This document shows, piece after piece, positions 3,894 through 28,708 of a stretch of DNA of 33,447 bases. A model generated the notes under the pieces. It saw only the letters and a list, made by a program, of their open reading frames with translations, was not told where the DNA came from and made no database searches. Origin of the DNA: Nitrobacter sp. 62-23 (GTDB taxonomy: Bacteria; Pseudomonadota; Alphaproteobacteria; Rhizobiales; Xanthobacteraceae); assembly GCF_001897285.1 (NCBI RefSeq), contig NZ_MKSM01000056.1, positions 1 to 33,447 of the forward strand. Direction: 5' to 3'. Each line of letters starts with the position of its first letter. The first letter of the stretch is position 1. Position numbers and translations under genes: made by a program.

Positions 3894-5471
3894 TCACGCC
3901 AGCCGCGACAACGCTTGGCGATGCTCGTGCATCAACAGAAACGCGCGATAGCGGCGGTCGAAGAAATCGCGCGATGCGGGAGCTGGCCAAACGGTGCGGC
4001 CGATCCGGGTCATCGCCGCCGCGGCTGCCGTGAGCGACGGATAGAGCCCGCAGCCGGCAGCGGCGGCACATGCGGTACCCGAAAGCACGCCGTCGGGTTG
4101 TTTTGGGAGGGATACCGAGACCCCGGCGGCATCGGCGTAAAGCTGGACCAGCAGCGGGCTCGCGGCATGGCCGCCGGTCAACCGGATCTGGTCGATCGCG
4201 TAGCCGGCGTCGTTCAGGGCATCGATGATATGTCGGGTTCCGAGCGCGATGCCGATCGCGGTCGCGAAATAAAGCCGGGTCAGTGAATCGGCGGAGGCAT
4301 CGAGGCGCAGACCGTGGATCACGCCGACGGAATCGGGATCGGCGAGTGGGGAGCGGTTGCCGTGAAAATCCGGCAACACATGCAGGCCTTCGACGAACGC
4401 CAGGCCGCTCTCGGCCCGTGCGGCCTCGATCCGCACCGCCATTACAGCGTGGCGGTCCGCGCCGAGCGATTGTCCTTCGGCGTGAAGGTCGAGGATGTGA
4501 TCGAGCAGCGAGCCGGTGGCGGACTGGCCGGCCTCGTTGAGCCAGTAGCCCGGCAGCATCGCGTCGTAATAGGGACCCCATATGCCGGGAATTTGCCTCG
4601 GATCGGGAGAGGCCGCCATGTGGCATGAGGAGGTGCCGGCGATCATGGCGAGCGTCTCGTTTAGCGCGGCGGCGTCGAGCCCGCCGAGGACGCCGATGCC
4701 GCCAGCATGCGCATCGATCGCGCCGACGCCGACGATGCAGTCGCGGGGCAGTCCAAGTTCGGCTGCGCTTTGGGCTGTCAGGGGGCCCGCGCTCGTTCCG
4801 ATCGATTGCGTCGAGGCGGGAAGCGAGGCGCGATCCGGCAGGTCATCAAGGCCGATGCGCGACAGGAAATCGCTTTGCCAGCCCGGTTTCTCGTGGGCGA
4901 GATAAGTCCATTTGCACGTCACGGTGCAGGTGGAGACCGCGGCCCGTCCCGTCGCCTTCCATGTCAGGAAGTCGGTGAGGTCGAGCACAAGCCCGTAGCG
5001 ACGCCACGCATCCGGACGATGCCGCTTCAGCCAGAGCAACTTGGGGATTTCCATTTCCGGCGACATCACATTGCCGACATGGTCCAGCACCCGATGGCGG
5101 GTAGCCGTAATCTCTTCGGCTTCGGCGGTGGCGCGATGGTCGGCCCACATGATGACGTTCCAGCGATCCTCGCCGGTTACCGAAACCGTGACCGGCCGGC
5201 CGGCGCGGTCAAGGGCGACGAGCGAGCAGGTGGCGTCGAAGGCGATGCCCTTGACCTCTCCCGCGGCGATGCGTCCGGTCGCAACGGCTTCGCGCACCGC
5301 CTGGCAGACCGCGGTCCAGATTTCGTCCGAACTGTGCTCGGCATGATTTGGCTGGGGATGCGCGGTCGAAAACGGAGCTTCGGCGCGCGCAAGCAGGACG
5401 CCGCGCTTGTCGAACACGCCGGCGCGCGCGCTGCTCGATCCGACGTCTACCGCGATCACAAGATCTTGCAT
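3894..5471 (-). CDS. FGGY-family pentulose kinase (ribulokinase-like)
   Basis: This 525-residue cytoplasmic sugar kinase phosphorylates a pentulose or related ketose/polyol with ATP. The N-terminal phosphate-binding strand is VIAVDVGSSSARAGVFD (residues 5-21). WNVIMWADHRA (104-114) and the segment around TCKW (185-188) are typical of the FGGY pentulose kinase branch. The putative catalytic base is Asp253 in VGAIDAHAGG. The C-terminal adenine-binding segment is LTGGHAASPLLVQLYADAAG (about 440-460). The frame extends upstream to a TTG at 5507, but the ATG at 5471 places the conserved strand right at the N-terminus and is preferred. It lies downstream of the ModE-like and DUF2478 genes on the same strand. 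No sugar transporter is adjacent, so the substrate is open: D-ribulose or a related sugar is most likely. Confidence 0.88.
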   Translation of the reverse strand: MQDLVIAVDVGSSSARAGVFDKRGVLLARAEAPFSTAHPQPNHAEHSSDEIWTAVCQAVREAVATGRIAAGEVKGIAFDATCSLVALDRAGRPVTVSVTGEDRWNVIMWADHRATAEAEEITATRHRVLDHVGNVMSPEMEIPKLLWLKRHRPDAWRRYGLVLDLTDFLTWKATGRAAVSTCTVTCKWTYLAHEKPGWQSDFLSRIGLDDLPDRASLPASTQSIGTSAGPLTAQSAAELGLPRDCIVGVGAIDAHAGGIGVLGGLDAAALNETLAMIAGTSSCHMAASPDPRQIPGIWGPYYDAMLPGYWLNEAGQSATGSLLDHILDLHAEGQSLGADRHAVMAVRIEAARAESGLAFVEGLHVLPDFHGNRSPLADPDSVGVIHGLRLDASADSLTRLYFATAIGIALGTRHIIDALNDAGYAIDQIRLTGGHAASPLLVQLYADAAGVSVSLPKQPDGVLSGTACAAAAGCGLYPSLTAAAAAMTRIGRTVWPAPASRDFFDRRYRAFLLMHEHRQALSRLA

Positions 5472-5528
5472 GCGACCATCTACAGATGAAGGGCCGCGGT
5501 CGGTCAAGAACGTTATGACCGCGAGAGC

Positions 5529-6092
5529 TTATTTGAAGATCTCGCAGACCGTTGCGCGATCGTTTCGGCGCAGGCTGGCATTGCGGGCCGATACGAGACG
5601 CCACCACGCATCCAGCGATTCGCGGTCGCAGTGCAATTTGACGGTCATGCCGCTGGCGAACGTGATCCAGTCTGGAAAATGGTGGGTCGGCACCGCGATC
5701 ACGACCGGAATGTCGGCACCGAGCGCGTGTGCGACCAGGTGGGCAAGGCCCTTGCCCTCACGCTCCTGCCGGCCGAAGCGGTTGACGATCAGGATGTCCG
5801 CGCCTTCGTCGAGGATCCTCGCAATCCGCTCGCCGACGCCCGTCAACTGTCCGAGGTCGAGCCGGCACCCCGCCGAATAGGTGCTTCTGTCCTGAAATAG
5901 TTGAAATTGCTCGCCGGTAGGCACGAGCGTCGCCGACAGGCTGGCGTCGGGACAGTAACGACCGAGTTGAACGATGCCCACGGCCCGGTGGCCGTTGGCG
6001 TTCAGACCCGAGGCGAACTCATGCAGGATCGCGTCCGGATCCTGACCTTCCGTATAAACCAGGGCGGCAAGGTCGCATTGGGCGTCGAACAT
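5529..6092 (-). CDS. DUF2478 domain protein (putative NTPase, molybdenum-associated family)
   Basis: This protein has 187 residues. The ATG at 6092 is chosen because a strong GAGGAGG lies just upstream of it on the minus strand; ATGs further upstream read only MLAAMLRRRI. The N-terminus is DLAALVYTEGQDPDAILHEF, and EGADILIVNRFGRQEREGKG (about residues 95-115) resembles a Walker-B-like strand of a small P-loop-type fold. PVVIAVPTHHFPDW follows. This pattern matches DUF2478, a family I know from molybdate-transport and ModE neighbourhoods. I see no classical GxxxxGK[ST] Walker A, so nucleotide binding is inference. The ModE-like gene lies upstream on the same strand and a ModE-type operator candidate (6184-6207) lies in between. 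The pentulose kinase gene follows 57 bp downstream. Confidence 0.75.
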   Translation of the reverse strand: MFDAQCDLAALVYTEGQDPDAILHEFASGLNANGHRAVGIVQLGRYCPDASLSATLVPTGEQFQLFQDRSTYSAGCRLDLGQLTGVGERIARILDEGADILIVNRFGRQEREGKGLAHLVAHALGADIPVVIAVPTHHFPDWITFASGMTVKLHCDRESLDAWWRLVSARNASLRRNDRATVCEIFK

Positions 6093-6183: not shown

Positions 6184-6207
6184 CGTTATAGCTATATGTA
6201 TATCACG
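6184..6207. promoter_or_regulatory. Candidate ModE-binding site (Mo-box) upstream of DUF2478
   Basis: The site reads CGTTAT-N12-ATCACG on the plus strand, in an otherwise GC-rich spacer. As I recall it, the enterobacterial ModE operator is CGTTAT-N12-ATAACG, so 11 of 12 arm positions agree. It lies 92 bp upstream of the DUF2478 start and downstream of the ModE-like gene. A second site (17931-17954, minus strand) upstream of the TonB receptor matches it at 18 of 24 positions, sharing CGTTATA, TATATG and ATAT in the same spacing. Confidence 0.65.
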
Positions 6208-6297
6208 TCCGGAAGGATCAGGCCAGAGCAGAGCGCTGCGGGCGGTCGACTGCTTCGGCTGAGCCTTGTCGGGCGCCCGACGTCACGGCGCTCCGGA

Positions 6298-6702
6298 TCA
6301 ACGAGCCCTGGTGTCTTTGTCTCGTTCCGCGCTTTTTTTTGGATGCCGGATGTCGTTACGCAGCGCCTCGAGTTCCTTGTGAACGGCGGTTGAGGCGTCG
6401 CGCTCGATCTTGCGATAGCGGGCGACCAGGGAGACCCCGAACGGCGTCAGGACCGCGCCGCCGCCATTCTTGCCGCCGGTCTGCCGCGCGACCGCGGCCT
6501 GCCGGCAGATGCGGTTTATTTCATCGACGAGATCCCAGGCGCGTTTGTAGGACATGTCCATGGCGCGTCCGGCGGCCGAAATCGAACCGCAAGCCTGTAT
6601 GCTCTCGAGTAACTCGATTTTGCCCGGTCCAATCCGGCCTTTTGAGTCGAGATCGATCCGCAAGCTCAATGAGGGGATTGATTTGTTGGATGAAGCCTGC
6701 AT
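6298..6702 (-). CDS. ModE-type winged-helix regulator, DNA-binding domain only
   Basis: This 134-residue protein matches the N-terminal LysR-like helix-turn-helix domain of ModE. RIDLDSKGRIGPGKIELLE (about 15-33) is followed by IQACGSISAAGRAMDMSYKRAWDLVDEIN (about 35-63), where SISAAGRAMDMSYKRAW is the recognition helix region conserved in ModE. A GG-rich wing follows (RQTGGKNGGGAVLTPFG). E. coli ModE has about 262 residues with a C-terminal pair of TOBE molybdate-binding domains; here the protein ends in a charged tail soon after the wing, so there is no molybdate sensor in cis. It may sense molybdenum through a partner or act as a constitutive repressor. The DUF2478 gene is next downstream with a Mo-box candidate between them. 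Regulation of molybdenum genes is inferred from family and context. Confidence 0.85.
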   Translation of the reverse strand: MQASSNKSIPSLSLRIDLDSKGRIGPGKIELLESIQACGSISAAGRAMDMSYKRAWDLVDEINRICRQAAVARQTGGKNGGGAVLTPFGVSLVARYRKIERDASTAVHKELEALRNDIRHPKKSAERDKDTRAR

Positions 6703-6712
6703 GTCACGCCCG

Positions 6713-6737
6713 ATAGTTCAATGGATATAGAAACTAT
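6713..6737. promoter_or_regulatory. Inverted repeat upstream of the ModE-like gene
   Basis: ATAGTT (6713-6718) and AACTAT (6732-6737) form a dyad with a 13-bp spacer, 11-35 bp upstream of the ModE-like start codon, in a local AT-rich patch. It sits where a promoter or autoregulatory operator would be. It does not match the CGTTAT-N12-ATnACG form of the two Mo-box candidates, so its binding protein is unknown. The left half belongs to a GATAGTTCAA decamer (6712-6721) that recurs at 21956 and, on the minus strand, at 28234-28225. Confidence 0.4.
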
Positions 6738-6807
6738 ACATCATTCCATGTTGAACGTCAGCTTTCGAATGATGCTATTAAGCGCGTTCGCCTTCGAGAA
6801 GAGCGGC

Positions 6808-6827
6808 GGTGATCGTCCACGATCACC
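6808..6827. promoter_or_regulatory. Perfect 9-bp-arm dyad between the channel and ModE-like genes
   Basis: GGTGATCGT and ACGATCACC form a perfect inverted repeat separated by only two bases. It lies 49 bp beyond the end of the MscS-like gene and about 105 bp upstream of the ModE-like gene. No T-tract follows on the minus strand, and a two-base loop is too tight for a full hairpin, so a protein-binding operator is more likely than a terminator. I cannot name the binder. Confidence 0.4.
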
Positions 6828-6875
6828 TTGCCGTGTTGGAAACGATTCGCGCGCAACAGTGGCCCCGAGAGCGCG

Positions 6876-9500
6876 CTATGGCGCAGCGGAGCGTTCGGTT
6901 CCGGGCAAACCTGCTCCGGCCAAATCTTGTCCGGCCAAGTCTTGTCTGGCCAAATCTCGTGCAGCCAGGTCTTTTGCAGCCAGGTCTCGCGCGGCCAGAT
7001 CTCGTCCAGCCAGATCTCGTCCAGCCAAGTCGCGAACCAGCGCTTCGATGCGGTCGAGATCCCGCACATGCAAATCCCGTTGAGGGTTCGGAAGGTTGAT
7101 TCCCTCCTTGCGGAAGCGTTTGAGTATCTGGAGCCTGACCTCGTTGGCGGCGCCGCCGTCGATGCCGATATGCGCGACGTGAAAGAACACCGTGAACTCC
7201 AGGGCGTCGGCGCCGAAATTGCCGAGAACGGCAAACGGCTCGGGGGATTTCAGCGCGCGCGGGTGCTGGGCGACAATGTCGAGCAGGATTTCGATGACCT
7301 TGTCCGGATCGGCGTCATAGGAGGTGCTGACCGCTACCGACAGGCGGGCCGAATAGCTGCCATGCATCCAGTTGACGACCTGTCCGCTGATCAGGTCCGC
7401 ATTCGGGACGATCACCGAGACGTTGTCGTAGGTCGCGATCTCGGTGGCGCGCACGTTGATGCGTTTCACGACGCCCATGCGGGCGCCGACCTCGATGCGA
7501 TCGCCGACCTTGATCGGGCGCTCCACAAGAAGGATCAGGCCGGAAACGAAGTTGTTGATGATGGATTGCAGTCCGAAGCCGATACCGACCGACAGCGCGC
7601 CGGCGACGATGGCGACGTTTTGCAGGTTGAGGCCGACATAGGACAGCGCGATCAGGGTGGCCAGAATGACGCCGGCATAGCCCGCGCCGGTGCCGATCGA
7701 ACTGCGAACGCCGACGTCGAGGCTGGTTTCCGGCAGGAAACGCTCCTCAAGCCAGCGCTTGAGCGCGCGCGTGGCCACGACACCGATGATAAAAACCGTA
7801 ACCGCGCCGAGAATCACGGACGGCGCGATGGTGATATTGCCGATCTGGATGCTGAAGAACGCCGTGGACATCGACGTGGCGAGGTCGTCGGAACGGATTC
7901 CCCAGGTTGTGAGCACAACGAAGGCCGTCAACCCGATCAGCGCCAGTTGAACGAGGCCGCCGAGCACCGCGGCGATCTGCCGGACCGCACTGCTGCCCAG
8001 ACCCGCGGTTTGCCGCAAGAAGCGGCCGACCGCGCCGTGAAACGCAAAAGTCGCATTGACGAGAACCGCGGCGAACCGGCTCAGCAGCACGAAGCTCATC
8101 AGCGCGGCGATCACCACCACCATTTCGATCGTGATAAACCGGCCCAAGGCGACATATCCCGCGAGCGGTCCGAGAATGGCGGCCGTGGCCATCACCCAGC
8201 CGACCGGAATCAACAGGCGCCACGCGGACTTGTTTACGGCGGTTGGCGGCGAGGGGGTGGTTTCGTCGTCGGCTTCGGTTGTGGCCGCAACGCGAAGCGC
8301 CCCCATGAAGAGCAGCGCCTTCGCAATGGCGATCATGCCCCGGCTTGCAATCGAAAGTTCGATCGGGGCTCTGATCGCGACGTTCACGGCGTCCACGACC
8401 ACGCCGAACGCGATGACCATGGCAAGCAGGACTGCGTAGGAAATCAGGCCGTCGGCAGCGGCATTGTCCATTTCGATCAGACGCCAGGTCGGACGTCCCG
8501 GCGCCAGCACCGCGATCGTCAGGCGGACAAAGAAGAAGCCGAAGGTGATGCCGATGAACAAGGCGCGAACGATCGGACTTACATCGTCGGGCAGCACTCC
8601 GAGCATCATGAGCGCCTGATAGAGCACGAGCAGCGCGACGGCGGTGAGCGCGGTGTCAGCAAGCACGATGACGGCGGCGGAGCCGGTTTTCCGCAGCGGG
8701 CTCGGGCTGGCAATCTCGGGGTCGCGTTTGGTCCAGCGCGACCACCAGCGCCGGCCCGGCGACAGGAAGAACCCGAGCACCACGACGGCTGCGATTGCGA
8801 AGCCCGACGCCGCGCGAAGCGGCTGTGATGCCAGCACCCGACCCCATTTGGAGAGGAGATCGGTCAAGTGGCTGGCGGCAACCGGAACGGCGTTTGCGGC
8901 GGTGATCCAGAACGTGGGATTGAGCAGGCTTGCAGAGCGCTGCAGCACCGAATCGTTGAACATCGCGCGCCGCCGATCGGAAATCGCCTCGATCGTTTGC
9001 TGAGCCCGCACATTGATGAGCTTGGCCTGCTGAATGATGCCCTGCCGCGCGGCGACTTCAGCCAGCAGCTTGGCGCGCTCGAGTTTCACGTCGTCAGATG
9101 GGGGAGCGGTCGCATCGGGACTTGGCGCGAGTTCGGCCGCCCGTGCAGTCGCGGCTTCGAGCGGAGGCGTGATTTCCGAGATCAGGTCGCGCGCTTCACT
9201 TTGCGTGGCTGTGGTCCGGTTTCGCAGATTATTCAATACGGCATCGTCGATCACATGGGCGCCGAGAACCGTTTCGATCTGATCGAGCGTCTGCTTCCAG
9301 CCGTCGAGTTTCGACTGTGCTTGAGGAAACTGCGGTGCCGGTACCGATGGCAGATCTTCAGCGGGAGCCGCCGGCGGAGGCGCGGTTGCCGGGCTTGCCG
9401 GCTTGGCGGTGCCGGCGTTTCCGGGAGCCGGTGTTCCGGCGTGCAACGGCATCCACGATAGAAACACGATGAAGAAAATTGCCGCGCGGATGATCTTCAT
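6876..9500 (-). CDS. MscS-family mechanosensitive channel with DUF3772-like N-terminus
   Basis: This 874-residue inner-membrane protein belongs to the large MscK/MscM-like subset of small-conductance channels that release solutes on osmotic downshock. Residues 1-22 are a signal peptide (IFFIVFLSWMPLHA), followed by a Pro/Ala-rich linker (22-60). A helical periplasmic domain of DUF3772 type covers about 65-190 (KLDGWKQTLDQIETVL). About ten hydrophobic segments follow. The MscS pore and beta domain lie at about 590-790: GIGFGLQSIINNFVSGL, then ERPIKVGDRIEV and NVSVIVPNADLISGQVVNW. The C-terminus (about 823-867) is nine pentads of the form [RKQ]DLA[GAR], encoded by a 15-bp tandem repeat and not typical of the family. 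It is transcribed alone. The start is the only sensible ATG before the signal peptide. Confidence 0.92.
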   Translation of the reverse strand: MKIIRAAIFFIVFLSWMPLHAGTPAPGNAGTAKPASPATAPPPAAPAEDLPSVPAPQFPQAQSKLDGWKQTLDQIETVLGAHVIDDAVLNNLRNRTTATQSEARDLISEITPPLEAATARAAELAPSPDATAPPSDDVKLERAKLLAEVAARQGIIQQAKLINVRAQQTIEAISDRRRAMFNDSVLQRSASLLNPTFWITAANAVPVAASHLTDLLSKWGRVLASQPLRAASGFAIAAVVVLGFFLSPGRRWWSRWTKRDPEIASPSPLRKTGSAAVIVLADTALTAVALLVLYQALMMLGVLPDDVSPIVRALFIGITFGFFFVRLTIAVLAPGRPTWRLIEMDNAAADGLISYAVLLAMVIAFGVVVDAVNVAIRAPIELSIASRGMIAIAKALLFMGALRVAATTEADDETTPSPPTAVNKSAWRLLIPVGWVMATAAILGPLAGYVALGRFITIEMVVVIAALMSFVLLSRFAAVLVNATFAFHGAVGRFLRQTAGLGSSAVRQIAAVLGGLVQLALIGLTAFVVLTTWGIRSDDLATSMSTAFFSIQIGNITIAPSVILGAVTVFIIGVVATRALKRWLEERFLPETSLDVGVRSSIGTGAGYAGVILATLIALSYVGLNLQNVAIVAGALSVGIGFGLQSIINNFVSGLILLVERPIKVGDRIEVGARMGVVKRINVRATEIATYDNVSVIVPNADLISGQVVNWMHGSYSARLSVAVSTSYDADPDKVIEILLDIVAQHPRALKSPEPFAVLGNFGADALEFTVFFHVAHIGIDGGAANEVRLQILKRFRKEGINLPNPQRDLHVRDLDRIEALVRDLAGRDLAGRDLAARDLAAKDLAARDLARQDLAGQDLAGAGLPGTERSAAP
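6904..7038 (-). repeat. 15-bp tandem repeat (minisatellite) inside the channel gene
   Basis: About nine tandem units of 15 bp are visible. On the plus strand they start with GCCAAATCTTGTCCG (6919-6933), and the two units at 6994-7023 are identical to each other (GCCAGATCTCGTCCA). The outer units are more degenerate. Since 15 is a multiple of 3, copy-number changes keep the frame, adding or removing one [RKQ]DLA[GAR] pentad each time. The array encodes the last part of the MscS-like protein just before a seven-residue tail. Confidence 0.9.
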
Positions 9501-9977
9501 GGCTCTCTTGCCTATCGAAACAGTGCTGAAATTGACGATGCAGCCAACCGGAACGGAAGGCGAAGCCGGCCATGATGGTTGTTGTCCGGCTATGCGATGC
9601 GCGTGAGGCGCGCCATTTTGGTTTGGCGGTACGATAGGCAGAAATCCGCCTATTGTATGTATTTCAGTTCAGCCGCTGCTTGCTTGAATGACAGGGTCAA
9701 CGGTGTCCCGTCAATGCTTGCATCCGCTCGTCATGCTTGGCGCGATCCGTTGGCGCGAATAGCCCAACCGAATTCCCAGCCTGTCCCCGTTGGGTTGACA
9801 TGCCCGCGGGGGGCTCCGGCGCGGCCGCGCGGGTAGATGGCCTACATCTTCTTGATATCGTTGTATTTTATTTTGTGTTTCGCTTGAGTGATGAGCCTCA
9901 CAGTTTCCCGGGCGCCGATGATCCAGGATGCGGCATCGACAATGGCCTCAGAGTCCACCGCAATCGAGGAGCCAAAG
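9501..9977. other. 477-bp intergenic region between channel gene and Cys-repeat gene
   Basis: This gap lies between divergent genes and no convincing coding region is visible. It must hold both promoters. A small dyad, ATAGGC (9634-9639) and GCCTAT (9648-9653), lies about 135 bp upstream of the channel start. An AT-rich tract at about 9850-9890 (TTGTATTTTATTTTGTG) is a plausible promoter area for the downstream gene. The frame of that gene stays open upstream to about 9888, but that stretch has no signal-like or conserved sequence. Confidence 0.5.
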
Positions 9978-10256
9978 ATGACCAGCGTTCGCACCGAGAT
10001 CGTCCGTCAGATAGCCGCGACCCTGGCTGTCGCAGTCTTCTTCGTCATGCCGGCCAGCGCGAGCCATGCCTTCACGGCCGAAGCGCAACGTCAGTGCACC
10101 GGCGATGCGTTCCGCCTGTGCAGCTCCGAAATTCCGGATATCGGACGGATTACCGCCTGCATGGTCAAGAACCGCTCCAGCCTCAGTTCGGGCTGCCGCG
10201 TCGAACTCGACAAAGGTCTGGCTGCTGCGACATTGCACAAGGTCGCCGAGCAGTAA
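9978..10256 (+). CDS. Small secreted protein with cysteine-rich repeat
   Basis: This protein has 92 residues. The ATG at 9978 follows CGAGGAG and leads straight into a signal peptide (IAATLAVAVFFVMPASASHA, about 11-31), so longer versions of the frame are rejected. The mature part carries four cysteines (40, 48, 61, 73) in QCTGDAFRLCSSEIPDIGRI, then ACMVKNRSSLSSGCRVEL. This spacing, C-x7-C-x12-C-x11-C with a CM and LS..C motif, resembles the cysteine-rich repeat of Golgi protein GLG1, which also occurs in small exported proteins of rhizobia. Two disulfides in the periplasm are likely. Function is unknown. The oxygenase gene starts 104 bp downstream on the same strand, but a common operon is not evident. 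Confidence 0.75.
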   Translation: MTSVRTEIVRQIAATLAVAVFFVMPASASHAFTAEAQRQCTGDAFRLCSSEIPDIGRITACMVKNRSSLSSGCRVELDKGLAAATLHKVAEQ

Positions 10257-10327
10257 GCCTTCGCCGGTTGCCATCGGTTGGTGATCCCCGTCATACTCGC
10301 CTATGATCGGGCAAGTACCGCAAGGTC

Positions 10328-10345
10328 GTCCGTTGCGCAGCGGAC
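10328..10345. promoter_or_regulatory. Near-perfect 18-bp palindrome upstream of the monooxygenase genes
   Basis: GTCCGTTGCGCAGCGGAC is palindromic except for one symmetric T/G pair (GTCCG-T-TGCGCA-G-CGGAC). It ends 15 bp before the ATG of the oxygenase gene. The position suits an operator for a TetR- or MarR-type repressor, or an mRNA hairpin just upstream of the ribosome binding site. No regulator gene is adjacent, so the binder is unknown. Confidence 0.42.
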
Positions 10346-10360
10346 AGTGAGGATAACCAG

Positions 10361-11584
10361 ATGGCAGGTATCAGCCCGCCTGCGAATCCGTCGTCAGAAC
10401 CGGATTACGGTGATAACTATGCCGCCATGATGGCGCGGGCACGGGCGCTCGTGCCGCAACTGCGCGAGCGGGCCGCAAGGACGGAAGAGCTGCGGCGGCT
10501 GCCACCGGAGACCGAGAAGGATTTTCATGCGGCCGGCCTGTTCAGGATTCTGCAGCCCAAGCGGGTCGGCGGCTCCGAATTCGACTACGTGGCGCTCGTC
10601 GACTTCGCCGAAGCGATCGCCATGGCCGACGCATCCGCGGCGTGGACGCTGGCGAACCTTGCGAGCCATCACTGGATGCTCGGCATGTTCGACAGCCGTG
10701 CGCAGGATGCCGTCTGGAGCAAGGATGCGACCGCATTGATCGCCTCCTCTTTCGTGTTTCCTTCCGGCCGCGCCAGGAAGGTCGACGGCGGCTACCGTTT
10801 GCAGGGCCACTGGCCGTTTTCGTCCGGTGTGGATTGCTGCGACTGGAACATGCTCGCGGGGCTCGTCTCATCCGATGATGAAGCCGACGGCATCGAATAC
10901 AGGATTTTCCTGCTTCCCCGCCAAGACTACCGCGTCATCGATATGTGGAACGCCGCCGGCCTGAAAGGCACGGGCTCGAACGACGTCGCCGTCGAAGACG
11001 TTTTCGTCGAAGACTGGAAAACGCTCTCGGTCGCGGAGATTGCCGGCGGTCCCTCGCCCGGCAGCGCCGCCAATCCGAACTCCCTTTATGCGCTGCCGGT
11101 GTTTGCACTGTTTCCCTTCGTGCTGTCCGGGGTGGCGCTCGGTAACGCCCAGGGCTGCCTCGAAGACTACATCGAGGTCGCACGCCATCGCGCAACCACC
11201 TACAGTCGCGCCATGCTCGGCGACCTTCAATCCACGCAGATCAAGATTGCCGAAGCGTCAGCGAAGATCGACGCCGCGCGGCTCGTCATGCGCTCGATCT
11301 GCATCAAAGCGATGGTGGAGGCGAGGCGTGGGCATATTCCCGACATGGCGGTCAAGACCGGATGGCGGCGCGACGGGGCTTATGCGGTGAACCTGTGTAC
11401 CGAGGCGGTGTCGCTGCTGGTTGCAGCGAGCGGGGCGCGGGGGTTGTCTGCGGGTTCTCCGCTGCAGCGGCAGTTCCGCGATGCGAACGCGATCAATTCC
11501 CACATCGCGTTCAGCTTCGATGCGGCGGGCACGGATTATGGCCGGGTTGCCCTTGGCCTGCCGTCAAAAAACCTGACGCTGTGA
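10361..11584 (+). CDS. Flavin-dependent monooxygenase, oxygenase component (acyl-CoA dehydrogenase fold)
   Basis: This protein has 407 residues. The fold is that of acyl-CoA dehydrogenases: a helical N-terminal domain (MARARALVPQLRERAARTEE, then LPPETEKDFHAAGLFRIL), a middle beta domain (FVFPSGRARKVDGGYRLQGHWPF split over about 128-150) and a helical C-terminal domain of the Acyl-CoA_dh_2 type. A flavin reductase gene follows 9 bp downstream, so this is more likely a group D two-component monooxygenase (HpaB/HsaA/DszC-like) that uses reduced flavin made by its partner than a true dehydrogenase. HWPFSSGVDCCDW and LKGTGSNDVAVEDVFV are typical of this branch. The substrate is not readable: no ring-cleavage or CoA-ligase genes are near. 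A palindrome at 10328-10345 may regulate it. Confidence 0.87.
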   Translation: MAGISPPANPSSEPDYGDNYAAMMARARALVPQLRERAARTEELRRLPPETEKDFHAAGLFRILQPKRVGGSEFDYVALVDFAEAIAMADASAAWTLANLASHHWMLGMFDSRAQDAVWSKDATALIASSFVFPSGRARKVDGGYRLQGHWPFSSGVDCCDWNMLAGLVSSDDEADGIEYRIFLLPRQDYRVIDMWNAAGLKGTGSNDVAVEDVFVEDWKTLSVAEIAGGPSPGSAANPNSLYALPVFALFPFVLSGVALGNAQGCLEDYIEVARHRATTYSRAMLGDLQSTQIKIAEASAKIDAARLVMRSICIKAMVEARRGHIPDMAVKTGWRRDGAYAVNLCTEAVSLLVAASGARGLSAGSPLQRQFRDANAINSHIAFSFDAAGTDYGRVALGLPSKNLTL

Positions 11585-11593
11585 GGTCGTCTG

Positions 11594-12136
11594 ATGACAG
11601 ACGGTCCTGACTTCCCCGGCGCGCCGGATCCGGCCAATGAACTCGCGAGCGACCAGTCGTCGCTCGATCCGCGCGACTTCCGCAACGCGCTCGGCACCTA
11701 TGCCACCGGCGTCACCATCATCACGGCCGCCGACCAGGCCGGACTCCCTTACGGGCTGACGTGCAACTCGTTCACGTCGGTCTCGCTGAACCCGCCGCTG
11801 GTGCTGTGGAGTCTGGTAGTTTATTCGCGGAACATGAGCGTCTTCCAGAACGCCAGCCATTTCGCCGTCAACGTGCTTGGCGCGTCGCAGCAGGAACTGG
11901 CCGTCAAATTTGCGATGCCGTCGAGCCGCAAGTTCGAAGGGGTCGCCTGGGCGCCAGGCCTCGGCGGCGCCCCGCTGCTGTCCGGCGGCGTTGCGAACTT
12001 TCAGTGTCGCACCGTCGATCGCTATTATGGCGGAGACCACGTCATCTTCCTCGGTGCCGTGGAGGCCTACAGCTACAACCGGGACGAATCGCTCTTGTTT
12101 GCCCGCGGCAAGTATGGCCGCTTCGTCGGCGAATGA
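11594..12136 (+). CDS. Flavin reductase family protein (HpaC/HsaB-like)
   Basis: This 180-residue protein belongs to the flavin reductase-like FMN-binding split-barrel family. Visible landmarks are FRNALGTYATGVTIITA (about 29-45), GLTCNSFTSVSLNPPLVLW (about 54-72), FAVNVLGASQQELAVKFA (about 90-107) and GGDHVIFLGAVEAY (about 146-159). It reduces FMN or FAD with NAD(P)H and supplies it to the oxygenase encoded 9 bp upstream; GAGG just before the start lies in that short spacer. The first 25 residues are a poorly conserved extension. The pair forms a two-gene operon. The transporter gene follows 47 bp later on the same strand and may be part of the same transcript. Confidence 0.92.
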   Translation: MTDGPDFPGAPDPANELASDQSSLDPRDFRNALGTYATGVTIITAADQAGLPYGLTCNSFTSVSLNPPLVLWSLVVYSRNMSVFQNASHFAVNVLGASQQELAVKFAMPSSRKFEGVAWAPGLGGAPLLSGGVANFQCRTVDRYYGGDHVIFLGAVEAYSYNRDESLLFARGKYGRFVGE

Positions 12137-12183
12137 CGCTTTGCCGGTGAGGGTTCTCCAAAATCTGCCGGAATGAGAGCGCG

Positions 12184-13404
12184 ATGACCGATCCGATCCT
12201 GATTGCTGGAATTCCCCTCGATTTCATTCTCTTCGGGTTCATTCTGCTCGGCATCGCGCTGTTTCATCGTCATACGCTTCCGATCGCGCTTGTCGGCCTC
12301 GTCGCCATCATCGGCTACAAAATCGGCTTCACCGGATTCAAGTCCGGCGCAGGGTGGAGCGGGTTCGGACGCCACATGGCGCACGAGTGGGTCACGCTGG
12401 CGAACCTGTTCCTGCTGCTGATGGGGTTTGCCATTCTGTCGCGACACTTCGAGGAAAGCCGGATACCGGACGAAATGCCGGCCGTGCTGCCCGATGACTG
12501 GAAAGGCGGCGTCCTCCTTCTCGTCATCGTTTTCGTGCTGTCGAGTTTTCTCGATAACATCGCCGGAGCGCTGATCGGGGGCACGGTCGCGCGTCACGTC
12601 TTTCGGGGGAAGGTCCATATCGGCTATCTCGTTGCGATCGTAGCGGCCTCCAACGCCGGCGGCTCCGGCAGCGTTGTCGGCGATACGACGACGACGATGA
12701 TGTGGATCGACGGCGTCAGTCCGCTCAGCGTCGTGGAGGCCTATGTCGCGGCCGTGGTGGCGCTCGCGATCTTCGCGGTTCCGGCCGCGATCAAGCAGCA
12801 TCGCTTTTCGCCGATCGTGAAGAAGCCGCCGAGCGGATCGCGCGTGGACGGCGCCCGGGTCTTCATCGTGGCAGCCATCCTGACCGCGGCATTGGTCGCA
12901 AACGTGACCGCGAACCTGAAATTTCCGGCACTGCTCGATACGCTTCCCGTGCTTGGGCTCGCAGTCTGGGCCGCGATTTTGCTGACCGCGTTCCTGCGCA
13001 CGCCGGACTGGAGCATCATGCCCGAAACCTTCAAGGGCACGATCTTTCTTCTGGCGCTCGTGACCGCCGCCTCCGTGATGCCGGTCGAGACATTGCCGTC
13101 GGCGTCATGGCAAACGACGCTCGGCCTCGGCTTTGTGTCGTCGGTGTTCGACAACATCCCGCTCACCGCGCTGGCGCTCAAGCAGGGCGGCTATGACTGG
13201 GGATTTCTTGCTTACGCCGTCGGCTTTGGCGGCTCGATGGTCTGGTTCGGCTCCTCCGCCGGCGTGGCGCTGTCGAACATGTATCCGGAGGCGAAGTCGG
13301 TGGGCTCATGGCTCAGGCACGGCTGGCCCGTTGCGGTCGCCTACGTTGCCGGCTTCTTCGTGATGCTCGCCGTTATCGGCTGGCATCCCGATCAGCCGCA
13401 TTGA
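12184..13404 (+). CDS. Ion transporter superfamily membrane protein (NhaD/ArsB/citrate-transporter type)
   Basis: This 406-residue protein is hydrophobic throughout, with about eleven membrane segments. Two inverted halves are visible: SSFLDNIAGALIGG followed by SNAGGSGSVVGDTTTTM (about 120-178), and SSVFDNIPLTALALKQGG followed by GFGGSMVWFGSSAGVALSN (about 318-365). The paired DN-I and GGS-x-G motifs are the substrate and ion sites of the IT superfamily, which includes NhaD sodium/proton antiporters, ArsB and citrate carriers. The real substrate cannot be read from sequence. It follows the flavin reductase gene by 47 bp, so it might move the monooxygenase substrate or product, but an independent cation antiporter is equally possible. 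It is convergent with pncB, with 14 bp between stop codons. Confidence 0.82.
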   Translation: MTDPILIAGIPLDFILFGFILLGIALFHRHTLPIALVGLVAIIGYKIGFTGFKSGAGWSGFGRHMAHEWVTLANLFLLLMGFAILSRHFEESRIPDEMPAVLPDDWKGGVLLLVIVFVLSSFLDNIAGALIGGTVARHVFRGKVHIGYLVAIVAASNAGGSGSVVGDTTTTMMWIDGVSPLSVVEAYVAAVVALAIFAVPAAIKQHRFSPIVKKPPSGSRVDGARVFIVAAILTAALVANVTANLKFPALLDTLPVLGLAVWAAILLTAFLRTPDWSIMPETFKGTIFLLALVTAASVMPVETLPSASWQTTLGLGFVSSVFDNIPLTALALKQGGYDWGFLAYAVGFGGSMVWFGSSAGVALSNMYPEAKSVGSWLRHGWPVAVAYVAGFFVMLAVIGWHPDQPH

Positions 13405-13418
13405 ATGCCAGTCTCAAC

Positions 13419-14723
13419 TCAAACATGGACCGGGGAATGAACGCGGCCGGCATGTCCGAACACCCGCAGGTAGCGTTCGATCTCCGAGGGCTCGCCGGTC
13501 GCCTTCTCGGGATTGTCCGACAGTTTCACTGCGGGACGGCCGTTGACCGATGTCACCTTGCAGACGATCGAGATCGGGTCGAGGTCGGCGGTGCCGTCGG
13601 GCGAACATCCCACGAAGTCGTTGGTCAGGTTGGTGCCCCAGCCGAAACTCACCCGGACGCGTCCGGCAAAATGCCGCTGCGTTTCCTCAATCGAATCGGC
13701 GTCCATGCCGTCGGAAAACACCAGCAGTTTTTCCCGAGGATCGCGGCCCTTCTGCTCCCACCACCTGATGATCTCCTCGCCGGCCGGGATCGGCGGCAGG
13801 CTGTCCGGGCGGAAGCCGGTCCAGTCCGCCACCCACTCCGGCGCGTCGCGCAGGAAAGCCTTGGTGCCGAAGGCGTCGGGCAGGGCGACCAGCAGGTTGC
13901 CTCCATAGGTGTGCCGCCATTGGTCGAGGATGCGATAGGGCGCCCGGCGGAGCGCGTCGTCGTCATCGGCGAGCGCGGCCGCGACCATGGGCAGTTCATG
14001 CGCGTTGGTGCCAATGGCTTCGAGATCGTTGTCCATCGCCAGCAGAACATTCGACGTGCCGGTGAAGGCGGGCCCCAATGCTTCCTTGGCGGCTTCCACG
14101 CACCAGCGCTGCCAGAGAAAGCCATGACGCCGCCGCGTTCCGAAGTCCGACAGCCGCAGGTCGTCGAGCTTGCGCAATCGTTCGAGTTTGCCCCACAGCT
14201 TTGCCTTGGCGCGCGCATACAGCACATCGAGCGCGAACCGGCCCTGACCCCTGGTCACCTGGCGCGACCGCAACTCGTTGAGAATGGCGAGCGCCGGAAT
14301 CTCCCACATCGTGGTGTGGGTCCATCGCCCATGGAAATGCAACTCGTACTGGCCATCGACTTTCCGCAATTCGTATTCAGGAAGCCGGAACGCCGCGAGC
14401 CAATTGATAAAGTCCGGCGTGAACATCTGGGTCTCGCCGTAGAACGTGTTGCCCGCGAGCCAGATCAGCTCCTTTTTACTGAAGGCGATGCTGCGGGCAT
14501 GGTCGAGCTGCGCCCGCAGTTCACCTTCGTCGATGACCTCGGCAAGCCGGACGTGGCGGCTGCGATTAATGACGGAAAACGTGACATGCTCGTTCGGATA
14601 GAATTCCCGGATCATCTGCAGCATGAGCAGCTTGTAGAAATCGGTATCGAGCAGGCTGCGCACGATCGGATCGAGGCGGAAGCCGTGGTTATAGGTTCGC
14701 GTCGCGATATCCGTAACGGTCAT
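13419..14723 (-). CDS. pncB: Nicotinate phosphoribosyltransferase
   Basis: This 434-residue enzyme converts nicotinate, PRPP and ATP to nicotinate mononucleotide in the Preiss-Handler salvage route to NAD. The N-terminus [18 protein letters not shown] (about 21-38) is diagnostic. FGTRRRH (194-200) binds the phosphoribosyl/nicotinate end. [24 protein letters not shown] (about 223-246) contains His242, the equivalent of the phosphohistidine that couples ATP hydrolysis. [17 protein letters not shown] and [13 protein letters not shown] lie in the C-terminal barrel. The length is normal for the proteobacterial type. It is a stand-alone gene, convergent with the transporter gene; 167 bp without a visible gene separate it from the ModA-like gene upstream. 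Confidence 0.96.
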
Positions 14724-14890
14724 GCCGCAAACTATAAGGCAGACGCGTGATCGCGAACAGGCCGGTCTGGTGTCGCGGCGGGTACGCGAAAGCTCAGACC
14801 CGGAAAGCTGGTCCGTCGACTATCCAGGTTTGCCGAGGCACCCCGTTGCACATCGGTCGTCGCTGAGGTGGCATCCGTTCCGGGCTCCGA

Positions 14891-15772
14891 CTAAAGCCCG
14901 CCGCTCGGAACGAAACCGTATTCCGGAAGGCGGCGTTGCGCATCCGGAGACACCAGGTAGAGCGCGAAGCGATACGCAGCCTCCCTGTGGCCCGCATCCT
15001 TGATTGTCGTCAGTATCGTCAGGCCATAATTGATGGGCATCGCGAGCGGCGGAGGCACTTCGACCCGCGTCAGCGGCAAATCCGACGGCTTTTCAGGTCC
15101 GGCGCTGATTTTCGTATGCGAACTGCAGTAACCGATGAAGGCGTCGGCCTCGTGCCGTGTAAAGAAATAGTGCACCGCCGTTTCGCCAGCCGGCAACTTG
15201 GGACTTGCTGGACCTCCAACCAGTTGATGCGCGTTTCTGATGAGAGTGTCCTTCGCGCCGGCGCGAACGGTCTCCGCGCGATCGAAGAACTGCCAGGCAT
15301 AGTCACCTCCGGGATCCGCGCCCGGCGTCGACGTGCCGATTTTTACTGACGGCTCAAGCAGCTTGTCGAGCAGAGTGGCTTGAGTGAGGCCAAGCTCCGC
15401 GCGGCCGGTCACGCAGAGTTGATTTCTGGCGAAGATGACAGGCCGCGTGCCGGCGCCTTCGAGGAAAAGTTGCTGCGGATGCTCCATGTTGGCGGACACG
15501 AAAATATCCGCGCCGCCTTCCTTGCGGATCCTGTTCAGCAGCAGTCCCGCCGGGCCGAATGTAAATTCAAACCTCTGGCCCGTCGTCCTGGCGTAATCCT
15601 CCGCAATTGCGGGGAGAATGCCTCGCGTGCTTCCGGCCGCGTAAACCCGCAGCGCCGGCGCCTGCTCCTCCGCTTCCGCCCGGCAGACCCATGAGCCGAC
15701 GATCCATGAGCCGACGATCGTCGTCAGAGCGAGGACGCCTGCATATGTGACCGCGATCGTCCGGTTCTTCAT
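14891..15772 (-). CDS. ModA-like periplasmic substrate-binding protein
   Basis: This protein has 293 residues, including an N-terminal export segment (about 8-35) ending near AEAEEQ. The body is a type II periplasmic binding fold of the ModA/COG0725 kind: LRVYAAGSTRGILPAIAEDY (about 41-60), GGADIFVSANMEHPQQL (about 85-101), STPGADPGGDYAWQFF (about 148-163) and a C-terminal RFALYLVSPDAQRRLPEYGF typical of ModA. In molybdate-binding ModA two serines contact the oxyanion; the second region here reads FGPAGLLLNRI, so that serine is apparently absent and the ligand may differ or be a complex. Its ATG overlaps the TGA of the TonB receptor (ATGA, 15769-15772), so the two are translationally coupled. 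No ABC permease or ATPase gene is adjacent. Molybdate-type oxyanion binding is inference. Confidence 0.85.
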   Translation of the reverse strand: MKNRTIAVTYAGVLALTTIVGSWIVGSWVCRAEAEEQAPALRVYAAGSTRGILPAIAEDYARTTGQRFEFTFGPAGLLLNRIRKEGGADIFVSANMEHPQQLFLEGAGTRPVIFARNQLCVTGRAELGLTQATLLDKLLEPSVKIGTSTPGADPGGDYAWQFFDRAETVRAGAKDTLIRNAHQLVGGPASPKLPAGETAVHYFFTRHEADAFIGYCSSHTKISAGPEKPSDLPLTRVEVPPPLAMPINYGLTILTTIKDAGHREAAYRFALYLVSPDAQRRLPEYGFVPSGGL

Positions 15773-17907
15773 AGCTCAACCTGCAACGAGGCGCGGAAAG
15801 TCCGCGGCGCGCCCAAAATGCCGGTCGCTGAACCTGTTGCGTTATACCCATTCTGAGCGGCCGGCGTCACGTTGGCCCAATAATGATCATCGGTGACATT
15901 GAAAGCATCGAACCTGAATGTGACCCGCTTGTCGGCAATGAGTTGAGCGTAACGCATGCCAAGATCGAGCACGGCATAGCCGGAAACGAATGACGTGTTC
16001 GCGTAATCCGTCGGCCGGTTCGTCGCGTAGGTGACGTTCCCGGTGAATGTCAGTCCTTGGACAGTGGGAACGTGATATTCGACCAGACAATTCGCCACGA
16101 ATTGAGATAAGCCCAAAATGCGTTGGCCGTCAGTTTGCGGCGAGCCCGTATTGTAGAGCCGTGGGTCAATGAACGTCATCCCGCTGAATACCGTCCATTC
16201 ATCGTTGATGGCGCCTGACGCCATCAGTTCAATTCCACGATTGATCTGCGTTCCTTTAACGGAAAAAACGTTATCCGTTCCGGTGTAAGCATAGGGCCGT
16301 TCGATTCTGTAGAGCGCGGCATTCAGGTTGAAACGCCCGAAATCGAATTTGACGCCAAGTTCATTTTGATTGCTTCGATACGGGGCCAGGGTCTGGCCCT
16401 GATTGGCGGTGCCAGCTGGTGCGCTATCGCCTTGCTGCAAACTATCGGCATAGGTGTAATAGGTCGTTATGTCTTTACGTGGCTTGAACATAATGCTGCC
16501 GAGCGGGCTCCATCCGGTAGCACTGGATGCGCTCGTGAGGCTGCCAACCGAATTGTAGTTGTGGGTATCGATCCAACTGTCGCTGATGGCGCCCAATACC
16601 GACCATTGGTCGTTGAAAGCAATGGTGTCACCCAAGGTAAGCGACTGCTGGAATGTGTTCACGGATCTGTAGCGGTTTTTGAAATCAGGAAAATTCGGCT
16701 CGGGATAGACCGACGGATTGTCGAGGCTGGCGCGTCCAGCGGTGATTGTTCCTCTCTGGAACGGCGTGTAGCGATCCCAGGAGAAACCATTGGTGGCGAG
16801 AACCAGATCGTGCTTGAGCGAACCCGTCTCGAAACGGCCGTTCAGAGCGGCTTGATTGCTGTTGACCGTATCTAGGCTATAGGTCGTTGTCGCCGCGGTG
16901 GTGACGTAATTTCCAGCGTTGTTCGTGATCGTATTTGTCGGAACGGTGGAGGCGCGATCGCTTGTATTGCGCGAGACGCCGGCGGAGAAGCTCCAGTTCT
17001 CGTTAAAATCGTGCTTGATGCGGCTACTCAAGAATGTTGTCGTATTGTCGTCTCCTCCCCACGGCTGGCCGTAACCAACCCTTGTCGGGTCGACCGCCGC
17101 CGGAAAGAGGACGCCCTTTGCAACGGCGAACGTTCCAGGAAATCCCTCCGTTTTGTAATGGTAGATGCTCGCATTCGTCTCGAGCACCGTGTCGGGACTG
17201 AAGTGGATATCGCCGCCGAAGCTGGCGAGTTGGCGCTTCAGCCGACTGTTGCGGACGTAGCTTTCGCCATCCTGATCGAGAAGGTTCAATCTATAGCCAA
17301 AACGATGCTCGGGATCGGCGAAGCCGCCGAGATCGGCATGCGCGAGCCACTGGCCCGTGGAAAGATAGCCTGCCGTCAAACGCTGCAATGGATCGACGGT
17401 CGGGCGCTTCATGACGTAATTGAAGGTTCCACCTGGTTGAGCCGGGCCAAACAACGCGCCGGCAATCCCGTTCAAGACGTCAATGCGTTGAAATTGCTCG
17501 ATCGGATATTCAGTGGTCGCGGCGATATTCAGCCCGTCGATGCGCGTATTTTGCACAACGCTTGCCTGAACACCGCGAGTCTGCGGACGGACGTTCTCGC
17601 CCTGAACCGAAGGAATGAAGCGAAATGCCTCGCGCACGCTTTGGATCTGCTGATTTTCGGCGAAACCTTCTGAAATCGTATTGACTGAGAAAGGCGTATC
17701 AATCAGCGGCTTCTTGCCCAGGGGGCCGAGTTCTATGCGGTTGACCTTGTAATCAGGAGTCACGTCGGCAGTTTGCGACGCATCGCTCCGGACATCGATT
17801 GTCGGAAGCATTTCTTGAGCCGATGCGCTTCCACACAGCGCTACCAAAATCGACAATGAAGGAACTCTGCGAAGGCGGTAACGCCTGGAACGACGGTCAG
17901 ACGACAT
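15769..17907 (-). CDS. TonB-dependent outer-membrane receptor (siderophore-receptor family)
   Basis: This protein has 712 residues. The signal peptide ends at about residue 30 (CGSASA|QE) and is followed by a TonB-box-like LPTIDV (34-39). The plug domain is clear: KKPLIDTPFSVNTISEGF, QSVREAFRFIPSVQG, TRGVQASVVQNTRIDGL, then the sequence up to NGIAGALFGPAQPGGTFNYVMKRP (about 145-168). The rest is a 22-strand-type barrel ending GAPRTFRASLQVEL, with a terminal Leu instead of the usual Phe. There is no N-terminal signalling (STN) domain, so it is not part of an ECF-sigma cascade. It is coupled to a ModA-like binding protein and preceded by a Mo-box candidate 24 bp upstream of its ATG, which argues for uptake of molybdate or a metal-ligand complex. 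By eye its base composition is less GC-rich than its neighbours. Confidence 0.92.
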   Translation of the reverse strand: MSSDRRSRRYRLRRVPSLSILVALCGSASAQEMLPTIDVRSDASQTADVTPDYKVNRIELGPLGKKPLIDTPFSVNTISEGFAENQQIQSVREAFRFIPSVQGENVRPQTRGVQASVVQNTRIDGLNIAATTEYPIEQFQRIDVLNGIAGALFGPAQPGGTFNYVMKRPTVDPLQRLTAGYLSTGQWLAHADLGGFADPEHRFGYRLNLLDQDGESYVRNSRLKRQLASFGGDIHFSPDTVLETNASIYHYKTEGFPGTFAVAKGVLFPAAVDPTRVGYGQPWGGDDNTTTFLSSRIKHDFNENWSFSAGVSRNTSDRASTVPTNTITNNAGNYVTTAATTTYSLDTVNSNQAALNGRFETGSLKHDLVLATNGFSWDRYTPFQRGTITAGRASLDNPSVYPEPNFPDFKNRYRSVNTFQQSLTLGDTIAFNDQWSVLGAISDSWIDTHNYNSVGSLTSASSATGWSPLGSIMFKPRKDITTYYTYADSLQQGDSAPAGTANQGQTLAPYRSNQNELGVKFDFGRFNLNAALYRIERPYAYTGTDNVFSVKGTQINRGIELMASGAINDEWTVFSGMTFIDPRLYNTGSPQTDGQRILGLSQFVANCLVEYHVPTVQGLTFTGNVTYATNRPTDYANTSFVSGYAVLDLGMRYAQLIADKRVTFRFDAFNVTDDHYWANVTPAAQNGYNATGSATGILGAPRTFRASLQVEL

Positions 17908-17930
17908 CTGGTCTCCTTAGCGGCAAAGAC

Positions 17931-17954
17931 TGATATATTCATATAAATATAACG
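17931..17954 (-). promoter_or_regulatory. Candidate ModE-binding site upstream of the TonB receptor
   Basis: On the minus strand the site reads CGTTAT-N12-ATATCA, ending 24 bp before the receptor ATG in a very AT-rich patch. It matches the site at 6184-6207 at 18 of 24 positions, sharing CGTTATA, TATATG and ATAT at the same spacing. The right arm is weaker against the classical ATAACG. The closeness to the start codon suits repression by overlap with the promoter or transcript start when molybdate is plentiful. Confidence 0.6.
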
Positions 17955-28697: not shown

Positions 28698-28708
28698 GAA
28701 CACCTCCC

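What the first reader, a model, noticed from the sequence alone, without database searches (positions are those of the whole stretch)
6184..17954. Two matching ModE-type operators link DUF2478 to a TonB receptor operon
Seen: 6184-6207 (plus) and 17931-17954 (minus) agree at 18 of 24 positions, both start CGTTATA and both sit upstream of a gene start in AT-rich patches within GC-rich DNA. Known, from memory: ModE operators have the form CGTTAT-N12-ATAACG. A ModE-type protein is encoded at 6298-6702. Inference: one regulon in which molybdate status controls DUF2478 and an outer-membrane receptor. This is the best candidate here for an uncharacterised system.
Basis: partly seen in the sequence, partly recalled or inferred. 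Interest (0 to 1): 0.85.

Follow-up and report, generated by a model that had tools for sequence, protein, structure and literature searches.

The report
ModE-controlled TonB receptor for molybdenum
A nitrite-oxidising bacterium (Nitrobacter) appears to switch on an outer-membrane receptor and a molybdate-type binding protein through molybdenum-regulator sites, which points to an energised outer-membrane route for molybdenum, a metal usually thought to leak in through pores.

Summary
The two 24-bp sites agree at 18 of 24 positions and are the only two matches (up to 3 mismatches) to the published E. coli ModE consensus in the window; shuffles average 0.03. The closest named relatives are Nitrobacter. 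A box precedes 5 of 5 intact Nitrobacter receptor orthologues and 19 of 23 named homologues of at least 41% identity (16 of 20 without Nitrobacter), against 1 of 13 weaker homologues and 0 of 23 distant TonB receptors. DUF2478 keeps a box in 7 of 8 Nitrobacter genomes, even where it has moved away from modE. Best reading: a ModE regulon controls TonB-dependent import of molybdate or a molybdenum chelate. Binding, molybdate response and substrate are untested. Two twists: the local ModE is HTH-only, and four Nitrobacter genomes estimated 100% complete show no PF03459 TOBE match; nine modABC loci show no box of score 13 or more. Ten noisy library searches listed no paper on such a system.

The parts
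17931..17954 (-). ModE-type operator (box B), 23 bases between it and the receptor start codon
   Evidence: box in 5 of 5 intact Nitrobacter orthologues with diverged spacers
15769..17907 (-). TonB-dependent receptor, 712 aa (plug plus barrel)
   Evidence: Pfam Plug and TonB_dep_Rec_b-barrel; TIGR01783 253.9 bits, above cut-off 223.5; nearest solved structures by sequence FemA and BauA
14891..15772 (-). ModA-like periplasmic substrate-binding protein, 293 aa; start overlaps the receptor stop by 4 bases
   Evidence: SBP_bac_11; NCBIfam molybdate-binding models at up to 231.5 bits, below the cut-off 288; AlphaFold model closest to ModA structures
6184..6207 (+). ModE-type operator (box A), 91 bases before the likely DUF2478 start
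   Evidence: box at this place in 6 of 6 Nitrobacter genomes with modE followed by DUF2478, and with the relocated gene in a seventh
5529..6092 (-). DUF2478 protein, 187 aa, THEP1-like fold without a Walker A motif (start revised from 6122)
   Evidence: PF10649 154.7 bits; AlphaFold model pLDDT 85.8, best PDB match THEP1 1ye8 E 7.3e-5; start; no Walker A in 20 of 20 aligned members
6298..6702 (-). ModE-type regulator, DNA-binding domain only, 134 aa
   Evidence: TIGR00637 90.2 bits over residues 23-110, below cut-off 98.5; the genome's two PF03459 matches lie on other contigs

Best explanation
The two sites are operators of one ModE regulon. SHOWN by sequence: conserved E. coli-type ModE boxes stand before (i) a receptor plus ModA-like operon and (ii) DUF2478. 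INFERRED: when molybdenum is plentiful a ModE-type protein sits on the boxes and represses; box B, 23 bases from the start codon, would block the promoter. When molybdenum is scarce the receptor is made and, powered by TonB, imports molybdate or (somewhat more likely, given the siderophore-receptor class) a molybdenum chelate across the outer membrane. The ModA-like protein then takes the oxyanion in the periplasm and passes it to an ABC importer: ModBC, or FecCD-type importers in lineages where the partner is a Peripla_BP_2 protein. DUF2478 is a cytoplasmic accessory of molybdenum handling with a THEP1-like fold and no usual ATP loop; its role is the least certain.
For: Box upstream of 5 of 5 intact Nitrobacter receptor orthologues. 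Box of score 13 or more in the region from 300 bases before the reading frame to the match start in 19 of 23 named homologues of at least 41% identity, against 1 of 13 weaker homologues and 0 of 23 distant TonB receptors (narrower windows agree). The three Nitrobacter among the 23 are also among the five; without them 16 of 20. ModA-like gene directly downstream in 14 of the 23; of six others tested, five have a Peripla_BP_2 gene next (L111, L112, L115, L117, L131) and L118 a methyltransferase, with its Peripla_BP_2 gene further on. Herminiimonas has an HTH-type ModE gene divergent from the boxed receptor and ModA-like gene. DUF2478 box in 7 of 8 Nitrobacter, present at the relocated gene in G006; in N. 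winogradskyi a DUF2478 gene follows receptor and ModA-like in the same direction. ModA-like model matches ModA structures best; the tyrosine that hydrogen-bonds molybdate in A. baumannii ModA (passage) aligns with Y215, kept in 18 of 18 ModA-like sequences and in two canonical Nitrobacter-genus ModA. Nitrobacter lives by nitrite oxidoreductase, a molybdenum enzyme (recalled).
Against: No binding or expression data. The local ModE lacks the molybdate-binding domain and is below the TIGR00637 cut-off. The receptor scores as a siderophore receptor and its closest solved relatives carry iron-siderophores. The ModA-like protein is below the curated ModA cut-offs and 22% identical to the genome's own ModA. 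4 of 23 homologues lack a box of score 13 (L107, L109, L118, L123), and 5 of 7 other loci from the phylum scan have none. In the order only 1 of 30 DUF2478 loci scanned has a box, and that one has a ModE-like gene beside it. Reversed-pattern controls are high in some genomes (9 against 14 in G001).
Confidence: 0.7

Rival explanations
1. The receptor is an ordinary iron-siderophore receptor. Its ModE control serves iron-molybdenum cross-talk, and the ModA-like protein carries something else.
For: TIGR01783 siderophore receptor above cut-off; nearest solved structures by sequence are FemA and BauA.
Against: Boxes are concentrated in this family: 19 of 23 against 0 of 23 distant TonB receptors. 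Partner is ModA-like in 14 of 23 and its model matches ModA structures best. An HTH-type ModE gene is adjacent in Herminiimonas. No iron box was tested for.
Confidence: 0.15
2. The boxes are real ModE sites, but the acting protein is a full-length ModE encoded elsewhere (beside the molybdenum-storage-like genes), not the window's HTH-only protein.
For: G001 and G004 carry a ModE HTH plus two TOBE repeats in one reading frame next to mosAB-like genes; in G000 the HTH part sits at a contig end there.
Against: G002, G003, G005 and G006 show no PF03459 TOBE match yet hold boxes (22, 12, 15 and 18 sites against 8, 0, 4 and 7 control matches) and HTH-size ModE genes.
Confidence: 0.3
3. The substrate is another oxyanion or complex (tungstate, vanadate, or a catecholate shared with iron) and molybdenum control is incidental.
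For: ModA proteins also bind tungstate and chromate (passages, PMC9171197); a loop that reads AASS in the genome's own ModA reads GPAG here.
Against: The operators are of the molybdenum-regulator type and the molybdate-contacting tyrosine is kept.
Confidence: 0.12
4. The two matches are chance AT-rich promoter DNA.
For: Site A alone is a weak match, and the genome has 7 control matches of that grade or better.
Against: Shuffles; conserved half-sites with diverged spacers across species, and a box present at DUF2478 after it moved.
Confidence: 0.03

Closest known systems
ModE regulons of E. coli, P. aeruginosa and R. capsulatus (MopA/MopB)
   Same: Operator form (consensus in passages of PMC545781 and PMC2700814); repression of uptake genes when molybdenum is present (passages, PMC9171197, PMC6925177).
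   Different: Here boxes stand before outer-membrane and periplasmic genes; nine Nitrobacter modABC loci show no box of score 13 or more (best 12.0 at two; 160 to about 630 bases upstream of modA were covered); the local ModE is HTH-only.
HTH-only ModE of two Desulfovibrio species and D. psychrophila (passage, PMC545781)
   [quoted passage not shown] the passage calls the mechanism of molybdenum sensing in Desulfovibrio unclear.
   Different: The predicted Desulfovibrio motif differs (CGGTCACG-N14-CGTGACCG); Nitrobacter keeps the E. coli-type motif.
Molybdenum-siderophore (azotochelin, protochelin) uptake in nitrogen-fixing bacteria (passage in the review PMC10780190)
   Same: Outer-membrane receptor import of a molybdenum chelate, then ModA in the periplasm.
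   Different: The passage names no receptor. Here a specific receptor with a dedicated ModA-like partner and ModE boxes is proposed; no chelator genes were identified or searched for.
P. aeruginosa H2-T6SS / secreted ModA / IcmP (passages in PMC8602904 and PMC11734730)
   Same: A ModA protein working with an outer-membrane protein to acquire molybdate.
   [quoted passage not shown] here it is a TonB-dependent barrel co-encoded with a ModA-like protein.
MolABC of Haemophilus influenzae (recalled, not tested by a call)
   Same: FecCD-type ABC importer with a Peripla_BP_2 binding protein for molybdate; similar genes follow the receptor in Shewanella, Paracoccus and Citrobacter.
   Different: No TonB receptor is part of MolABC as I recall it.

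Membership tests
ModE operator (E. coli type) | CGNTATATA-N6-TATATANCG inverted repeat | tested here: met
   Both sites within 3 mismatches, only two in window, 0.03 expected
ModE operator (E. coli type) | Conserved upstream of orthologous genes | tested here: met
   5 of 5 intact Nitrobacter receptors; 19 of 23 named homologues; DUF2478 7 of 8
ModE operator (E. coli type) | Bound by ModE in a molybdate-dependent way | not testable with these tools
   Needs gel shift or footprint
ModE regulator | ModE N-terminal DNA-binding domain (TIGR00637) | tested here: inconclusive
   90.2 bits, E 7e-26, but below the curated cut-off 98.5; 0 of 9 Nitrobacter genomes pass that cut-off
ModE regulator | C-terminal molybdate-binding MOP/TOBE domains | tested here: not met
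   134-aa protein; no PF03459 match on contig C56
TonB-dependent transporter | Plug plus beta-barrel domains | tested here: met
   PF07715 and PF00593 above cut-off; TIGR01783 above cut-off
TonB-dependent transporter | Transport of molybdate or a molybdenum complex | not testable with these tools
   Inferred from regulation and partner genes
ModA (molybdate-binding protein) | ModA fold | tested here: met
   AlphaFold pLDDT 85.4; most of the top 40 PDB matches are ModA/WtpA-type, e.g. 1wod TM 0.65/0.81
ModA (molybdate-binding protein) | Curated ModA score | tested here: not met
   TIGR01256 56.5 vs 62.5; PRK03537.1-4 231.5 vs 288. The Burkholderia sp. S171 partner passes TIGR01256 (74.7)
ModA (molybdate-binding protein) | Oxyanion-contacting tyrosine | tested here: met
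   Y215 kept in 18 of 18 ModA-like sequences and aligned with the tyrosine of two canonical ModA; by alignment only
DUF2478 / THEP1-like NTPase | PF10649 domain and THEP1 fold | tested here: met
   154.7 bits; 1ye8 E 7.3e-5
DUF2478 / THEP1-like NTPase | Walker A (P-loop) motif | tested here: not met
   [AG]xxxxGK[ST] in 0 of 20 aligned members

The most novel reading that the evidence does not exclude
In Nitrobacter the ModE regulon has been rewired from the inner-membrane ModABC importer to the cell surface. HTH-only ModE, in four genomes without any PF03459 molybdate-binding domain match, governs a molybdenum-scavenging surface programme: the receptor plus ModA-like pair, further TonB receptors, FecCD importers, a porin, an MbnH-like enzyme and a TonB/ExbBD, two-partner and type II secretion cluster. 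That would be a TonB-dependent molybdenum import system with named genes, and a ModE that senses molybdenum through an unknown partner.
Probability: 0.35. Interest if true: 0.85.

Novelty: new variant of a known kind. Interest (0 to 1): 0.68.

Why it matters
Molybdate is usually thought to cross the outer membrane by diffusion through porins (recalled). A receptor family with ModE operators and a dedicated ModA-like partner would add molybdenum to the TonB substrates, give named candidate genes to the long-discussed uptake of molybdenum chelates, and suggest how nitrite oxidisers, which depend on a molybdenum enzyme, obtain a scarce metal. The HTH-only ModE raises a testable question: how can a ModE without its molybdate domain sense molybdenum?

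Tried and rejected
Studholme and Pau 2003 is not held. DUF2478 as a general ModE target: not supported outside Nitrobacter, since 1 of 30 loci scanned from the order has boxes of score 13 or more. DUF2478 as an ATPase: not supported, no Walker A motif in 20 of 20. ModE control of modABC in Nitrobacter: looked for and not found; best score 12.0 at two of nine loci, at most 11 at the other seven (the stretch upstream of modA is short in some loci, 160 bases in the shortest). An iron-type operator at site B was not tested. The second-look aligner was not available. The first receptor control measured from the match start, which in some controls lies inside the gene; one search repeats it from 300 bases before the reading frame, with the same 0 of 23. 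No expression data were found; passages of a transcriptome paper with N. winogradskyi (PMC10781756) show no molybdenum or TonB gene of Nitrobacter. Literature: searches listed no paper whose title or abstract start describes a ModE-controlled TonB receptor. They are weak: the term ModE also matches the word 'mode', several lists were capped (for example 30 of 93, 20 of 118), and most subscription papers are not held. In one search no listed paper held both DUF2478 and molybdenum. Of papers I saw passages only, of PMC2700814, PMC545781, PMC10781756, PMC6925177, PMC10780190, PMC9171197, PMC11734730, PMC8602904 and PMC4965479; a term search in PMC12914433 found nothing.
Full report
OBSERVATION. 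The sites are as described.

WHAT THE GENES ARE. 15769-17907 (-) is a TonB-dependent receptor. 6298-6702 (-) is the DNA-binding part of ModE only. 5529-6092 (-) is DUF2478; the start is moved from 6122 to 6092 because homologues begin there (MFDAQ in close relatives) and an AGGAGG precedes that codon. The window is a whole contig (C56) of a 142-contig, 3.79-Mb draft. Its closest named relatives are Nitrobacter.

CONSERVATION AT THE RECEPTOR. Scoring scale (mine): 16 positions of CGTTATAT-N8-ATATAACG, half credit for A/C (or T/G) at the variable base. All 5 intact Nitrobacter orthologues (G000, G001, G002, G003, G006; 82-100% identical) have a box of score 14.5 close upstream with different spacers; the sixth, in G005, matches only residues 290-712 and its locus has no box of score 12 or more. 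A scan of the species-genome collection with two short peptide patterns from seven receptors (so not exhaustive) returned 36 loci. Looking from 300 bases before the reading frame to the match start, 19 of the 23 with at least 41% identity have a box of score 13 or more (18 by a plain 300-base window, which misplaces the start of L120). In one search none of 60 shuffles of each upstream stretch reached the score in those 18. The misses are L107, L109, L118 and L123 (11.5-12.0). Of the 13 under 41%, 1 has a box, L119 (Shewanella mangrovi, 13.5). As control, 0 of 23 distant TonB receptors taken have one (best 11.5). In a FastTree tree (supports not inspected) boxes occur across the family, with box-less members inside boxed groups (L107, L109, L123, L118) and one wholly box-less branch (L205-L208, L210, L121, L122, L124) nested in it. 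The family is sparse: 6 of 398 genomes sampled from the phylum, ours included, match at E 1e-100 or better; of the 7 loci other than the window's, L204 and the genome's own paralogue L209 have upstream boxes of 13 or more.

PARTNERS. A ModA-like gene lies directly downstream in 14 of the 23. Of six of the other nine that were tested, the next gene is a Peripla_BP_2 protein in L111, L112, L115, L117 and L131 and a methyltransferase in L118; L113, L114 and L120 were not tested. FecCD and ATPase genes follow in Citrobacter, Paracoccus and Shewanella, with a methyltransferase in the last two. In Herminiimonas an HTH-size ModE gene (TIGR00637 81.3 bits) is divergent from the boxed receptor and ModA-like gene. 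In N. winogradskyi a DUF2478 gene follows receptor and ModA-like in the same direction, and a second box precedes a FecCD / receptor / Peripla_BP_2 run.

CONSERVATION AT DUF2478. A box of score 13.5 or more lies between modE and DUF2478 in 6 of 6 Nitrobacter genomes with modE followed by DUF2478. In G006 the gene is no longer beside modE and that gap has no box, but DUF2478 on contig C42 has a 14.5 box directly upstream. G008 has the gene in another arrangement without a box; G007 has no DUF2478 match. So 7 of 8. The second Nitrobacter DUF2478 has no box of 12 or more in 7 of 7 loci scanned, and of 30 DUF2478 loci from the order only L203, which also has a ModE-like gene beside it by eye, shows boxes. 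Neighbours there include what look by eye like a molybdopterin oxidoreductase and a FecCD run, not tested with family models.

MOLECULES. The ModA-like model (pLDDT 85.4) matches ModA structures best. Its Y215 aligns with the tyrosine whose side chain hydrogen-bonds molybdate in A. baumannii ModA (Y195, passage); it is kept in 18 of 18 ModA-like sequences, but another pocket loop differs (GPAG) and scores stay below curated cut-offs. DUF2478 (pLDDT 85.8) matches THEP1 nucleoside triphosphatases without a Walker A motif.

WIDER REGULON. In this genome further boxes stand near an SBP_bac_11 protein, a two-partner-secretion transporter and a type II secretin (C122), between a receptor paralogue and a FecCD importer (C135), before another receptor (C83) and near molybdenum-storage-like genes (C31; that identity is recalled, Pfam says amino-acid-kinase family). 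In other Nitrobacter: a Porin_2 gene, an Alginate_exp gene, a TonB/ExbBD set, and a receptor followed by an MbnH-family di-heme enzyme (273.7 bits, below its cut-off 362.85). Some boxes stand beside genes with no clear link (C39, C16, C104). Pattern counts against the reversed control are 19/7, 18/7, 14/9, 5/2, 2/1, 12/0, 22/3, 15/4 and 22/8 for G000, G006, G001, G008, G007, G003, G004, G005 and G002, so a third or more of single hits in some genomes may be chance. The modABC loci show no box of 13 or more in 9 of 9.

SENSING PUZZLE. G002, G003, G005 and G006 (estimated 100% complete) show no PF03459 TOBE match at E 0.001, while G000, G001, G004, G007 and G008 do; in G001 and G004 two TOBE repeats share a frame with a ModE HTH. 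Other TOBE families were not searched. So in four genomes boxes are kept with what looks like HTH-only ModE alone.

READING. Conservation, partner genes and motif make a ModE regulon for TonB-linked molybdenum uptake the best explanation (0.7). Whether the cargo is molybdate or a chelate is open; the siderophore-receptor class favours a chelate. Concepts close to this exist in print: outer-membrane receptors for molybdenum-siderophores (passage) and secreted ModA with IcmP in P. aeruginosa (passages). None of the ten search listings showed this system.

Noticed in passing
window 3894-5507 (-): An FGGY-family kinase gene begins 21 bases downstream of the DUF2478 gene in the same direction (longest-ORF start), possibly one transcript; in G005 (L151) the called gene next to DUF2478 runs the other way.
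   Followed up: partly
window 28365-29956 (-): SorA-type sulfite dehydrogenase (a molybdenum enzyme; NCBIfam SorA 696.8 bits) with a small cytochrome-like gene (by eye; no Pfam match); no box score of 11.5 or more there.
   Followed up: partly
window 6876-9500 (-): MscS/MscK-like channel with a C-terminal run of near-identical RDLAxRDLA repeats (roughly residues 820-865).
   Followed up: no
L056 and L057 (G000:C122): Boxes at contig positions 3752, 3786, 9864 and 22210 stand at or before an SBP_bac_11 protein, a TpsB-type transporter and a GspD secretin; looks like a molybdenum-linked secretion cluster.
   Followed up: partly
L138:13311-17205: Two tandem boxes before a TonB receptor followed by an unknown 213-aa protein and an MbnH-family di-heme enzyme, a pairing known from copper systems (recalled).
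   Followed up: partly
L141:8946-9025 (G003): Two similar boxes stand beside the flhA-like gene, where this receptor gene was not called, like vestigial operators.
   Followed up: no
L140:8108-8156 (G003): Two adjacent boxes (13.0 each) upstream of a Porin_2 gene (start 8349), which would tie porin expression to molybdenum.
   Followed up: partly
L118:8001-8825 and L119:10983-11813: A methyltransferase-like gene occurs in the receptor / FecCD clusters of both Paracoccus denitrificans and Shewanella mangrovi.
   Followed up: partly
L121, L122, L124, L205-L208, L210: A box-less branch of the receptor family, Acetobacter in the three named cases; regulator unknown.
   Followed up: no
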